A stretch of 64,000 nt of DNA, taken from positions 124,001 to 188,000 of the forward strand of contig NZ_FZOK01000008.1 of the NCBI RefSeq assembly GCF_900188245.1. The letters are read 5' to 3'. Below, piece by piece: positions 45,722 through 48,966 of the stretch; position 1 is the first letter of the stretch, and each line of letters begins with the position of its first letter. Source of the stretch: Belliella buryatensis (GTDB lineage Bacteria; Bacteroidota; Bacteroidia; Cytophagales; Cyclobacteriaceae). The notes under the pieces were generated by a model that was given only the letters and a program-made list of their open reading frames with translations, did no database searches and was not told the DNA's origin. The position numbers were made by a program, and so were the translations under genes.

Positions 45722-47329
45722 ATGACGATTTTAACCTTGCTTGTTATCTCTGGATTGATTCTGCTTTTGGCATATTTCATCTATGGTAGGTATGTCTACA
45801 ATAAGTTTAAGTTGAATAAAGATAGACGGTCTCCAGCACATCAATTCAAAGATGGCATCGATTATATTCCAAGTAAACCAATTGTCGTGTTGGGTCATCA
45901 CTTTGCTTCCATAGCGGGTGCCGGCCCTATCGTAGGGCCTATCATTGCTTTGACTTTCGGTTGGATACCTGCTGTGATTTGGATATTGGTTGGGGGAATA
46001 TTCTTTGGGGCGGTGCACGATCTGGGAAGCATGGCTGCCTCCTTGAGGAATCAAGGCAAATCCATCGGCGTGATCATTCAAAACAACATTGGTTACAAGG
46101 GCAAACAGCTTTTTATCCTATTCAGCTTTTCAACTTTGATCCTTATCATTGGGGTATTTGCGGATATCATAGCCAAGACCTTTGTCAGCAATCCAGGAGT
46201 AGCATCGGCATCCATCTTATTTATCGGTCTCGCAATTGCTTTTGGAGCTATCAATAAAATGATTGGACATCGCGGAATAGCTTTCACGCTGTTATCAATT
46301 ATCGGCGTGATTCTAATGTACTATTTTGTCTATTTAGGGATGAAGCTCCCATTTGAACTGAGCTATCAAGTTTGGGTTTATATTTTGCTAGCTTACGCAT
46401 TTGTAGCTTCTGTTGCACCTATTTCTATGCTACTGCAGCCTAGAGATTATCTGAATAGCTTCCTTTTATATGGATTAATCATAGCTGCTGTGGTCGGGGT
46501 ATTTGTTGCCAATCCCGAAATAGTCATGGATAATAAAGTCCATTTTAATTCAGAAAACTTAGGCTATATATTCCCTGTACTTTTTGTCACCATCGCTTGT
46601 GGAGCAATCAGTGGTTTTCATTCCTTAGTAGCGTCAGGCACTACTTCCAAGCAACTTGATAAAGAAAGTGATGCCAAATTGGTGGGGTTTGGAGGTATGT
46701 TGATTGAGTCATTCCTAGCGATCATTTCAGTAGGAGCTGTGATAATCCTCAGCAGAGCTGAATACTTAGATCAAATAAACCTGCTTGGACCTGTCCCACT
46801 TTTTGCCAATGGACTAGGTGGTATGATTTCAAGCTTGGGGTTATCTGAAACCTTTGCTGTTGGTTTTGTAGCATTGACTGTATCAGCTTTTGCTTTGACT
46901 ACTTTAGATACTTGTACGAGATTGGCACGATTTACACTTCAGGAGTATTTTGAGGACATCAAGAGTCCTAAGGTTGCAAAAGTCGCTCAAAATAGATATC
47001 TGTCCACTTCGATCGTTGTCGTTTTAGCAGTTATACTTTTGGGTTCAGGAGGATTTAGCATACTTTGGCCAATTTTTGGTTCTGCAAACCAATTGCTAGC
47101 AGCACTGGCATTATTGACTATTTCTGTTTGGTTAATGAAGCAAAAAACCAATGCCACATTTGTGCTGATCCCGATGTTCTTCATGTTCACTGTGACATTG
47201 ACTTCTTTGGCATTGTTTGCTTGGAAAAATTTTCAAAATGGGGGATATATTCTAAGTGCCATAGCAGTGATTCTGTTTCTTCTTTCATTAGCCCTGATTT
47301 TATTAGCTAGTAAAAGTCTGAAAAGATAG
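45722..47329 (+). CDS. CstA-family carbon starvation/peptide transporter
   Basis: Integral membrane protein of 535 aa with about 14-16 helices. The family signature FKDGIDYIPSKPIVVLGHHFASIAGAGPIVGP lies at residues ~40-72 (quoted in parts: GHHFASIAGAGPI), and GFHSLVASGTTSKQL near 300. CstA proteins take up pyruvate or peptides under carbon starvation in E. coli and relatives; this one has the shorter length of the Cytophagales forms (E. coli CstA ~700). The gene stands alone; I saw no CRP-like site or BtsSR-type regulator next to it. Confidence 0.92.
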   Translation: MTILTLLVISGLILLLAYFIYGRYVYNKFKLNKDRRSPAHQFKDGIDYIPSKPIVVLGHHFASIAGAGPIVGPIIALTFGWIPAVIWILVGGIFFGAVHDLGSMAASLRNQGKSIGVIIQNNIGYKGKQLFILFSFSTLILIIGVFADIIAKTFVSNPGVASASILFIGLAIAFGAINKMIGHRGIAFTLLSIIGVILMYYFVYLGMKLPFELSYQVWVYILLAYAFVASVAPISMLLQPRDYLNSFLLYGLIIAAVVGVFVANPEIVMDNKVHFNSENLGYIFPVLFVTIACGAISGFHSLVASGTTSKQLDKESDAKLVGFGGMLIESFLAIISVGAVIILSRAEYLDQINLLGPVPLFANGLGGMISSLGLSETFAVGFVALTVSAFALTTLDTCTRLARFTLQEYFEDIKSPKVAKVAQNRYLSTSIVVVLAVILLGSGGFSILWPIFGSANQLLAALALLTISVWLMKQKTNATFVLIPMFFMFTVTLTSLALFAWKNFQNGGYILSAIAVILFLLSLALILLASKSLKR

Positions 47330-47481
47330 GTGTAAAATAGCCAAATTCTATCAAAAAAACCTGTATCTAAATGATCAATCGCCGTCTAAAAAAAAAAGAC
47401 CTCTGATGGAATAATTTCAATCCTTTGGCTACATAAAGTTGTTGTTGAAAATTTTATAAAGTTACTTTAAAACTAACTTCG

Positions 47482-47508
47482 AAATCGAGCTCGATTTTGG
47501 CCAAAATC
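47482..47508. promoter_or_regulatory. Two interlocked 16-bp perfect palindromes
   Basis: AAATCGAGCTCGATTT (47482-47497) and GATTTTGGCCAAAATC (47493-47508) share five bases. Each is a perfect palindrome. They lie 30-56 bases before the ATG of the Cys-rich peptide gene, where an operator is expected. Confidence 0.5.
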
Positions 47509-47537
47509 TTTTTAGTAAATCTAAATTCTTTATCAAA

Positions 47538-47759
47538 ATGAAAAAGCTATTATTTGGAATTGCCAGTTTAGTATTGTTTACAAGCTTAACCATTCAGGCT
47601 CATACTATGCGATGGCAGCAGTTAAGGTGTACTGATGGTACTGAAGGTGTCTATGAAATCTGTTGGTATACAGGTGATGGAAATGAATGTGACACATATA
47701 GGGAGAAAACTAGAAATTGTGATCCTATTACAGATCCAGGAGATCCAATTATTAATTAA
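47538..47759 (+). CDS. Small secreted Cys-rich peptide, unknown
   Basis: 73 aa: Sec signal peptide (MKKLLFGIASLVLFTSLTIQA, given as the first ~21 residues) followed by a mature part of ~52 residues with four cysteines (RC, EIC, NEC, NC) that could make two disulfides, three Trp/Tyr near the middle, and a Pro-rich acidic tail DPITDPGDP. I do not recognise the family. It is followed by a terminator hairpin and, 67 bases on, by a beta-propeller lipoprotein; small secreted peptides paired with such lipoproteins recur in Bacteroidota (the NVEALA peptides are the best known), but this peptide lacks the NVEALA motif. Confidence 0.72.
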   Translation: MKKLLFGIASLVLFTSLTIQAHTMRWQQLRCTDGTEGVYEICWYTGDGNECDTYREKTRNCDPITDPGDPIIN

Positions 47760-47781
47760 TTACTAATACAAGTATTACTTT

Positions 47782-47812
47782 GGCCAAAGGAAAAAATCCC
47801 TTTGGCCTTTTT
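47782..47812 (+). terminator. Terminator/attenuator between peptide and propeller genes
   Basis: GGCCAAAGG pairs with CCTTTGGCC around an 8-base A-rich loop, then five T. It stands in the 67-base gap between two same-strand genes, with no separate promoter visible, so it may set their expression ratio. Confidence 0.75.
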
Positions 47813-47826
47813 AATTTATTTCATAA

Positions 47827-48966
47827 ATGAAAAATCTAAACACTTTAATCTTCCTTCTTTTTATCTCATTGGGTTGCCAGTCAAATAATCCAGATTCAAC
47901 AATTAAAACAATCTCCATTGATCTAACTCAAGAAAAATCAGACATCAATCTTACTGATTTAATTAAACCAGATGTAGATATTATTCCTCTTGAAAATTAT
48001 GATCAAACTGGAAACCCTATCTATTTCAGAGATATACATAAATTCCGTCATTATAAGAACGAATTTTACATGCTGGATTTCATTTATGGTCAACGCATCC
48101 TAGTATTCAATAATAATGGTGAATTTCAAAGAGCTGTAGGACACTTAGAGGAAGGTCCTGGAGGTCTTTTACAGGCTATGGATTTTGACATCATCAACGA
48201 CACTATAAAAGTTCTTGATGTGGGAAGGATCCTCAATTTTGAACCTAATGGTAACTACATTTCATTGGATAAAATGGAGGGTTTTATGGCAAGCAAATTT
48301 ATAAAATTTGAAATAGGGTATGCGTTTATAGGAGGTGGAAGAGATACTGATAATCTTATTCTAGCTAATAATGAAATCCGTCAAGAAAGTTCGTTTTTCC
48401 CATATCATACTAGGGCATTAAATGTCCTTTTAATTAACCCTATGTATTATTCACCTGAGGGTGATGCGATTTACAGACGACAACTTAATGATACCCTATT
48501 TCAAATCAATGATTTTGAAAGGCCAAGCCCTTACCTATATATTGACTTCAAACAAAAGAAATCAAATATCAATGAATTACTCAATAGCCCAAACCCAGAA
48601 GCAGCTATCGTAAATGCAGGTACTCAGTATTGCGAAATCCATGATTTTTATGAAACAAAGGAATATCAGTATTTGGCGTTTTCTGTTGAGGGCGAGGCTT
48701 GGGTGTATTTGCAATCAAAGAAATCTGAAAAATCTTTTCTTTATAAAAGAAACAATATAACAAATGACATCATGCTTGACCCATACGCATTTCCAGTTGG
48801 AGTGATTGGCAACAAGTTTGTTTTCAAGGCAAATCCACAAAATGTTTTGGCAGGAATAGAAAGCTATCAAGGAACGAACAATCATTTTGAAAAACTAAAA
48901 AAACTTTGGGCAAATATGGAAAAGGAAGGTAACCCAGTACTTTTTCTGGTAGAATTCAATTTTTAG
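47827..48966 (+). CDS. 6-bladed beta-propeller lipoprotein
   Basis: Lipoprotein with lipobox LGC (Cys at ~17), 379 aa. The body matches the Bacteroidota 6-bladed beta-propeller family: start VDIIPLENYDQTGNPIYFRDIHKF, then blade-like repeats such as FYMLDFIYGQRILVFNNNGEF and the GxxEEGPGG turn. A role in envelope sensing or binding is possible but not shown. It follows the small Cys-rich peptide gene and its terminator; nothing on the same strand follows within 3 kb. The region is more A+T-rich than the core genes nearby, consistent with accessory DNA. Confidence 0.82.
   Translation: MKNLNTLIFLLFISLGCQSNNPDSTIKTISIDLTQEKSDINLTDLIKPDVDIIPLENYDQTGNPIYFRDIHKFRHYKNEFYMLDFIYGQRILVFNNNGEFQRAVGHLEEGPGGLLQAMDFDIINDTIKVLDVGRILNFEPNGNYISLDKMEGFMASKFIKFEIGYAFIGGGRDTDNLILANNEIRQESSFFPYHTRALNVLLINPMYYSPEGDAIYRRQLNDTLFQINDFERPSPYLYIDFKQKKSNINELLNSPNPEAAIVNAGTQYCEIHDFYETKEYQYLAFSVEGEAWVYLQSKKSEKSFLYKRNNITNDIMLDPYAFPVGVIGNKFVFKANPQNVLAGIESYQGTNNHFEKLKKLWANMEKEGNPVLFLVEFNF

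What the first reader, a model, noticed from the sequence alone, without database searches (positions are those of the whole stretch)
47482..48966. Candidate undescribed module: Cys-rich secreted peptide plus 6-bladed beta-propeller lipoprotein
Seen: a 73-aa peptide with signal sequence and four Cys in the mature part, then 67 bases on a 379-aa propeller lipoprotein on the same strand, isolated from other genes, preceded by palindromes and separated by a terminator. Known: Bacteroidota often pair short secreted peptides (NVEALA type) with 6-bladed propeller lipoproteins. Inference: the peptide may be the ligand or substrate of the lipoprotein. The peptide family here is not one I recognise.
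Basis: partly seen in the sequence, partly recalled or inferred. Interest (0 to 1): 0.7.

Follow-up and report, generated by a model that had tools for sequence, protein, structure and literature searches.

The report
Secreted Cys-peptide and propeller lipoprotein cassette
A small exported peptide with four cysteines and the membrane-anchored propeller protein made next to it appear to be a matched pair, one of many such pairs in these bacteria, and in related strains many of the pairs carry repeat tracts in front of the genes that look like on/off switches.

Summary
In detail: a 73-aa peptide (signal sequence, four Cys in the mature part), a terminator, and after 67 nt a DUF5128 propeller lipoprotein, preceded by two 16-bp palindromes. 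It is not a lone oddity. In its genus plus two further genomes 25 of 88 DUF5128 genes have a secreted Cys-rich peptide just upstream, against 4 of 72 control ORFs. One separate peptide family precedes DUF5128 in 9 of 9 newly found members; NVEALA peptides do much the same. Over 47 pairs, mature-peptide similarity tracks propeller similarity (r 0.80), leader similarity hardly (0.25). In two cases leaders differ in history while mature peptide and propeller stay together. So mature peptide plus propeller is the unit, most likely a binding pair. The window cassette has no repeat in its likely promoter. Its peptide has one other known member and is not shown to be related to NVEALA or to the commoner four-Cys family. 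A close relative deleted most of the cassette. What the pair does is unknown; ligand and anchored receptor is my best guess.

The parts
47388..47397 (+). A10 tract 150 to 141 nt before the peptide start. Not in the likely promoter spacer; probably not a switch.
   Evidence: The two A. antarcticus copies have A14 and A10 starting 90 and 92 nt before the start instead.
47438..47469 (+). Possible promoter by eye (TTG ... TACTTTA, like the Bacteroidota -33/-7 elements, which are recalled). Low confidence.
   Evidence: read, placed; the sigma-70 scan of the region shows no excess of promoter-like sites (10 found, shuffles 8.4).
47482..47497 (.). Palindrome 1, AAATCGAGCTCGATTT; overlaps palindrome 2 by 5 bases
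47493..47508 (.). Palindrome 2, GATTTTGGCCAAAATC, 29 nt before the peptide start. The identical 16-mer lies 28 nt before a different four-Cys peptide in another genus (G008).
47538..47759 (+). 73-aa secreted peptide; signal sequence residues 1-21 (47538-47600), mature part residues 22-73 with Cys 31, 42, 51, 61
   Evidence: cleavage site by eye
47782..47812 (+). Terminator-like hairpin and T run between peptide and propeller; implies more peptide than propeller transcript
   Evidence: the same kind of element in 23 of 47 pairs against a shuffle mean of 2.6, maximum 7
47827..48966 (+). 379-aa DUF5128 (PF17170) six-bladed propeller lipoprotein
   Evidence: Most of it is missing in relative G007, which keeps a scar matching window 48748 onward.

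Best explanation
The cassette makes a small Sec-exported peptide, probably held by two disulfides, and its own lipid-anchored propeller partner; the mature peptide binds that propeller in the cell envelope or at the cell surface, as ligand and anchored receptor. A terminator between the genes makes the peptide in excess. The genome carries at least seven such pairs with different mature peptides (one with a broken propeller), and promoter plus leader can be swapped without changing the mature peptide-propeller match. In relatives many cassettes have repeat tracts at the promoter that gain or lose units, so expression probably flips on and off. SHOWN: the pairing, its recurrence in other families, linked divergence of mature peptide and propeller, leader swapping, terminator-like hairpins, repeat-length differences. 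INFERRED: physical binding, disulfides, location, on/off switching. GUESSED: the use, which I take to be recognition between cells or of something outside.
For: Secreted Cys-rich peptide within 250 nt upstream of 25 of 88 DUF5128 genes against 4 of 72 control ORFs (Fisher 1.5e-4). 9 of 9 new members of a four-Cys family and 9 of 11 NVEALA peptides directly precede DUF5128 or TolB_like genes. Mantel over 47 pairs: mature-propeller 0.80 (0 of 2000 permutations as high), leader-propeller 0.25; partial 0.79 and 0.12; dereplicated 0.76, 0.73, 0.68 against 0.12, 0.14, 0.09. A. antarcticus cassettes a and b are alike through promoter and leader only, while b's mature part and propeller both match the G001:C11 pairs best. 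G006:C22:300083 has one leader type, but its mature part and propeller match G003 and G001 pairs with unrelated leaders. In two ortholog pairs synonymous divergence of mature part and propeller agree (0.28/0.30, 0.97/1.09) where the leader differs (0.90, 0.39). Terminator-like hairpins in 23 of 47 gaps. Repeats upstream in 28 of 47.
Against: Adjacent genes are co-inherited anyway, so linked divergence does not prove binding, and short leaders saturate, which lowers their correlation; within the four-Cys set the leader correlates too (0.48). The synonymous-site comparison is not uniform: L021/L170 gives 0.14, 1.5 and 0.81 for leader, mature part and propeller, and L110/L169, L066/L102 and window/L009a are saturated or unclear. 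63 of 88 DUF5128 genes have no such peptide by my filter. The window pair has one homologous pair only, and that propeller is frameshifted. Both AlphaFold models failed (pLDDT 39.6 and 51.8), so no structural support. The window cassette has no repeat in its likely promoter.
Confidence: 0.5

Rival explanations
1. Bacteriocin-like peptide with an immunity lipoprotein: the peptide harms related cells and the propeller protects the producer.
For: Paired genes, variable mature part, several cassettes per genome, propellers without a peptide (63 of 88), peptides broken beside a lipoprotein (L173, L068, L212 and L217), a cassette deleted in a close relative.
Against: Intact peptides stand beside broken propellers in three loci: L023 in the window's own genome, L009a, L102; assembly errors are not excluded. 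The terminator-like hairpin would make less immunity protein than toxin. No export or killing gene was recognised among the ORFs listed at 43-53 kb; four neighbours were scanned with Pfam.
Confidence: 0.17
2. The propeller is a chaperone or enzyme that folds or modifies the peptide, which acts elsewhere.
For: Same linkage data; a peptide of this kind precedes a protein that looks thioredoxin-like by eye and then a propeller in G014 (L060 11049-13080).
Against: Propeller and mature peptide have equal non-synonymous divergence in two ortholog pairs (0.08/0.08, 0.11/0.11), which is odd for a general enzyme, though other pairs differ; the thioredoxin-like protein has no Pfam match.
Confidence: 0.17
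3. No functional partnership: the peptide gene is merely an expression unit upstream of the propeller, inherited with it.
For: Adjacency alone yields linked divergence; most DUF5128 genes examined have no peptide (63 of 88).
Against: Four Cys conserved and selection on the mature part; leaders part from mature peptides while mature parts stay with propellers; 9 of 9 members of one peptide family and 9 of 11 NVEALA peptides sit directly before DUF5128 or TolB_like genes.
Confidence: 0.1

Closest known systems
NVEALA peptides (PF14055) with propeller lipoproteins
   Same: Short exported peptide with 3-6 Cys directly before a lipoprotein of a propeller family, same strand, gaps of -7 to 166 nt in the ten measured
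   Different: No NVEALA motif and no PF14055 match in the window peptide or over the cut-off anywhere in its genome
Core four-Cys peptide family found here (alignment A5 without the window and A. antarcticus rows)
   Same: Four Cys at similar spacing, paired with DUF5128; one member (G008) shares the identical palindrome at the same distance
   Different: The window peptide scores 1.2 bits against it, below Cys-fixed shuffles (up to 12.6); the window propeller does not fall in its clade
DUF5128 (PF17170)
   Same: Family match well over the cut-off, lipobox by eye
   Different: A peptide partner is not part of the family's description as far as I recall; other lipoproteins in such cassettes match TolB_like or DUF4221
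BamI of the Bacteroidota BAM complex (PMC12578637, passages seen)
   Same: Six-bladed propeller component of a largely extracellular outer-membrane complex
   Different: Has an extra N-terminal domain and belongs to BAM; no peptide partner in the passages I saw; homology not tested
Phase-variable contingency loci driven by simple-sequence repeats (recalled)
   Same: Repeat tracts upstream, unit number differing between near-identical loci, in relatives of the window genome and one other cassette of it
   Different: Not seen in the window cassette; switching itself not measured

Membership tests
DUF5128 (PF17170) | Profile score over Pfam's cut-off | tested here: met
   78.3 against 22.9 bits
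DUF5128 (PF17170) | Six-bladed propeller fold | tested here: inconclusive
   model with 4 aligned sequences has pLDDT 39.6; fold taken from the Pfam description
NVEALA (PF14055) | Profile match and NVEALA motif | tested here: not met
   0 Pfam families for the peptide; own genome no match over the cut-off
NVEALA (PF14055) | Propeller-family lipoprotein directly downstream (feature established here, not Pfam's definition) | tested here: met
   window gap 67 nt; true of 9 of 11 NVEALA peptides by DUF5128 or TolB_like, a tenth by DUF4221
DUF6520 (PF20130) | Profile match | tested here: not met
   none for the window peptide; a sister peptide (L021) at 18.7 against 25.4 bits
Core four-Cys peptide family | Match to a profile built without the window peptide | tested here: not met
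   1.2 bits
Phase-variable promoter | Repeat tract within the promoter | tested here: not met
   only an A10 150 nt upstream in the window; repeats are present in many relatives
Phase-variable promoter | Expression switches with tract length | not testable with these tools
   no expression data
Bacteriocin-immunity pair | Killing activity and protection | not testable with these tools
   needs an assay
Bacteriocin-immunity pair | No intact toxin beside a broken immunity gene | tested here: inconclusive
   three exceptions, L023, L009a and L102, but assembly error or silent promoters are not excluded

The most novel reading that the evidence does not exclude
Bacteroidota carry a large, unnamed class of two-gene recognition cassettes: a hypervariable secreted disulfide peptide and its cognate propeller lipoprotein. 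Leaders and promoters are shuffled between cassettes while the peptide-propeller match is kept, and in Cyclobacteriaceae the cassettes are switched on and off one by one by repeat tracts in their promoters, giving each cell its own combination of peptide-receptor pairs.
Probability: 0.35. Interest if true: 0.88.

Novelty: new variant of a known kind. Interest (0 to 1): 0.66.

Why it matters
DUF5128 propeller lipoproteins are common in Bacteroidota (a match at E 0.001 or better in 103 of 296 sampled genomes), and Pfam gives the related DUF4221 no function. If these proteins are anchored receptors of their own secreted peptides, many orphan genes gain a testable partner. If the cassettes are also phase-variable, this phylum has an unrecognised switchable surface or signalling repertoire.

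Tried and rejected
AlphaFold of the propeller (4 sequences, pLDDT 39.6) and of the peptide (2 sequences, pLDDT 51.8) were unusable, so no fold search was run. PDB sequence searches gave nothing for either protein. Plasmids gave nothing for the propeller and phages nothing for the peptide. Rfam gave nothing credible. I first took the window peptide for a member of the four-Cys family (alignments A1, A2); a profile without it rejected this, and the tree puts its propeller elsewhere. I rejected the idea that the cassette was newly inserted here relative to G007: that relative keeps a propeller scar, so it was lost there. Palindrome 2 as a genome-wide operator was rejected: of its 6 occurrences in 148 family genomes, 4 lie inside ORFs.

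Literature: no paper for NVEALA, DUF5128 or DUF6520. One search (DUF4221, '6-bladed beta-propeller protein', 'NVEALA domain', 'BF2992 family', 'TolB-like 6-bladed') found one paper, on a Deinococcus enzyme, for the second term only. Broader searches showed nothing on this pairing in the listings I saw. The library is open-access PMC only, so absence there is weak.

Full report
WHAT IS THERE. Peptide 47538-47759 (+, 73 aa), terminator-like hairpin 47782-47807, DUF5128 lipoprotein 47827-48966 (+, 379 aa, 78.3 bits against a cut-off of 22.9), with two overlapping perfect 16-bp palindromes at 47482-47497 and 47493-47508. Neighbours are CstA upstream and, convergent downstream, a protein with a sub-threshold PF13557 match. 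The peptide has no Pfam match up to E 1 and one NCBIfam match at E 0.063, far under its cut-off.

NEAREST RELATIVES OF THE WINDOW PAIR. One relative of the peptide was found in the genome collection (84,980 species), in Algoriphagus antarcticus (57% identity in the best segment). In the other 7 genomes of the window's genus one search lists only four matches, in three genomes, at E 0.05-0.37: two lie in a 3231-aa frame and two in frames with stops. In A. antarcticus the peptide again precedes the orthologous propeller (71% identity over the C-terminal 297 residues), which is frameshifted there; a T8 run lies at the break. All four Cys are conserved; pN 0.25 against pS 0.74 shows selection on the protein. 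CstA is present in 8 of 8 genus genomes. In G007, the closest by CstA (95%), the DNA after CstA matches window 48748 onward, the 3' end of the propeller: window 47326-48747 is missing, so most of the cassette was deleted there. None of the seven relatives shows the cassette in the stretch fetched after CstA.

HOW GENERAL THE PAIRING IS. The own genome has 12 DUF5128 genes, six with a secreted Cys-rich peptide directly upstream. From the search of 29 genomes (14 with matches) I took the 91 places of at least 45 bits in the 8 genus genomes plus G008 and G014; weaker places and the genomes G012, G021, G022 and G028 were left out. 88 could be given a start; three were dropped. 25 of 88 have a secreted peptide with at least three Cys within 250 nt upstream, against 4 of 72 control ORFs of the same loci (Fisher 1.5e-4; orthologues are not independent). 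Of the four controls one matches TolB_like, one is a weak DUF5128-like protein (22.4 bits, under the cut-off), and two have no Pfam match. Ten of the 29 loci L119-L147, the best matches of a phylum-wide search, show the same arrangement: eight in three other families, two in the same family.

A TEST FROM THE PEPTIDE SIDE. A profile of 9 mature four-Cys sequences (window and A. antarcticus among them) was run on 295 class and 148 family genomes. Members with E of at most 0.001 outside the training set number 9 (G674, G617 twice, G687, G681, G646, G657, G658, G633). The gene directly downstream is DUF5128 over the cut-off in 9 of 9. In G646 the peptide has a stop, and in G633 the open frame lacks the fourth Cys. 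One further hit below 0.001 (G570) covers half the profile in a region of ABC-transporter-like genes and is taken as chance. Of the hits above 0.001 those that I opened look like chance.

THE WINDOW PEPTIDE IS NOT SHOWN TO BELONG TO THAT FAMILY. Scored with a profile of 14 sequences without the window and A. antarcticus, it gets 1.2 bits and A. antarcticus 3.4, while 200 Cys-fixed shuffles reach 12.6; L127, which I had labelled four-Cys, gets only 14.0. On the propeller tree (116 rows, quick method, many long branches) 13 of 16 rows labelled four-Cys lie in one starred clade of 18; L126 and L127 lie in another, and the window's propeller joins neither. The clade also holds 5 rows without an intact peptide, two of them with a broken one. 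The window pair is therefore its own small peptide family within a shared architecture. One link remains: palindrome 2, identical over 16 bases, stands 29 nt before the window peptide and 28 nt before a four-Cys peptide of G008; of six occurrences in 148 family genomes the other four lie inside ORFs.

NVEALA. 2 of 395 phylum genomes have PF14055 over the cut-off, with 11 peptides over it. The gene directly downstream is DUF5128 or TolB_like over the cut-off in 9 of 11 (L200, L201, L204-L210), DUF4221 in L202, and in L203 a 206-aa ORF comes first.

MATURE PEPTIDE AND PROPELLER DIVERGE TOGETHER. For 47 pairs (25 from the genus set, 2 from L009, 18 from other calls, 2 of the former controls) mature-propeller similarity correlates at 0.80, leader-propeller at 0.25, with partial values 0.79 and 0.12. 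Dereplicated sets of 43, 41 and 37 pairs give 0.76, 0.73, 0.68 against 0.12, 0.14, 0.09; within the 18 rows labelled four-Cys the values are 0.69 and 0.48. Two leader swaps stand out. In A. antarcticus, cassettes a and b are alike through a duplicated end of the upstream gene, promoter and leader, and unlike from the mature part on, where b is nearest to the two G001:C11 pairs in both peptide and propeller. G006:C22:300083 shares its leader with cassettes of its own cluster and of G005, but its mature part and propeller are nearest to G003 and G001 pairs that have other leaders. Synonymous divergence agrees in two ortholog pairs (mature 0.28 and propeller 0.30 with leader 0.90; 0.97 and 1.09 with 0.39) and not clearly in four others, the window pair included. 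Co-inheritance of neighbours explains part of this; the leader contrast is what argues for a functional unit.

REGULATION. Terminator-like hairpins lie in 23 of 47 gaps (shuffle mean 2.6, maximum 7 in 100 rounds). Simple-sequence repeats lie within 200 nt upstream of 28 of 47 peptide genes, 6 of 63 propellers without peptide, and 7 of 96 other genes; one of the seven reads the same tract as a cassette from the other side. Shuffles give 7.6 on average, 18 at most in 200 rounds; Fisher 3e-11 and 2e-8. Without A/T runs the counts are 21, 5 and 7. The rows are not independent, since several share one promoter type. A probe read from that type (TTTGCTTCTTTCTTTC) has 18 occurrences in 6 of 8 genus genomes and none in the genus for the reversed pattern. 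15 of 18 are followed at 90-111 nt by an intact secreted peptide and then a lipoprotein; two by a peptide with a broken start; one by a 472-aa lipoprotein. Six of the 18 were loci I already had; of the 12 others 9 have an intact peptide. Unit number runs from 2 to 7, and 16 of 18 distances to the next conserved element fall on steps of four between 31 and 51. Of four pairs of loci aligned, one (G002:C6 and the own genome's C50) is 93% identical over 1086 bases and differs, in the first 950, by one indel only, exactly one repeat unit; a second differs by two units in the tract and by one base after it; two were too diverged to tell. This is what phase-variable promoters look like; switching was not measured. 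The window cassette has no such tract in its likely promoter, only an A10 further up.

PARTNERS AFTER THAT PROMOTER. Of the 15 lipoproteins after an intact peptide, 4 are DUF5128, 3 TolB_like and 2 DUF4221 over the cut-off; 4 match under a cut-off or only my own profile, and 2 match nothing.

FUNCTION. Best guess: secreted ligand and anchored receptor. Against toxin-immunity: intact peptides beside broken propellers in L023, L009a and L102. Against a passive leader gene: conserved Cys and selection. No structural evidence could be had.

LITERATURE. No paper in the searched library names NVEALA, DUF5128 or DUF6520, and the only paper holds none of DUF4221, 'NVEALA domain', 'BF2992 family' or 'TolB-like 6-bladed'. 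Passages of PMC12578637 describe BamI, a six-bladed propeller component of the largely extracellular BAM complex; passages of PMC12636315 describe lipidated modified peptides of Bacteroidota, a different system. Other papers: listings only.

Noticed in passing
L060 9024-10949 and L057 9252-9872: O-antigen ligase-type genes (Wzy_C) lie inside propeller clusters of G014 and G006.
   Followed up: partly
L060 11049-11984: A secreted Cys-rich peptide precedes a 208-aa protein that looks thioredoxin-like by eye (no Pfam match), then a propeller.
   Followed up: partly
L009 4600-6900: In A. antarcticus the 3' end of the gene upstream of cassette a (nicotinate-nucleotide adenylyltransferase-like by eye) is repeated before cassette b, as if gene end, promoter and leader were copied together.
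   Followed up: yes
L212 and L217, after the (CTTT)n promoter: Two peptide genes have broken starts, one of them next to A runs; possibly a second, translational switch.
   Followed up: no
L076 and L175 upstream regions: Long tracts of other types, (TTATTTAC)8 and G16, upstream of four-Cys peptides.
   Followed up: partly
G000:C50:86008-86023 (L220): A further cassette in the window's own genome: 107-aa peptide with 3 CTTT units and a lipoprotein just under the TolB_like cut-off in the stretch held (27.1 against 29.2); the G002 copy with 4 units is over it.
   Followed up: partly
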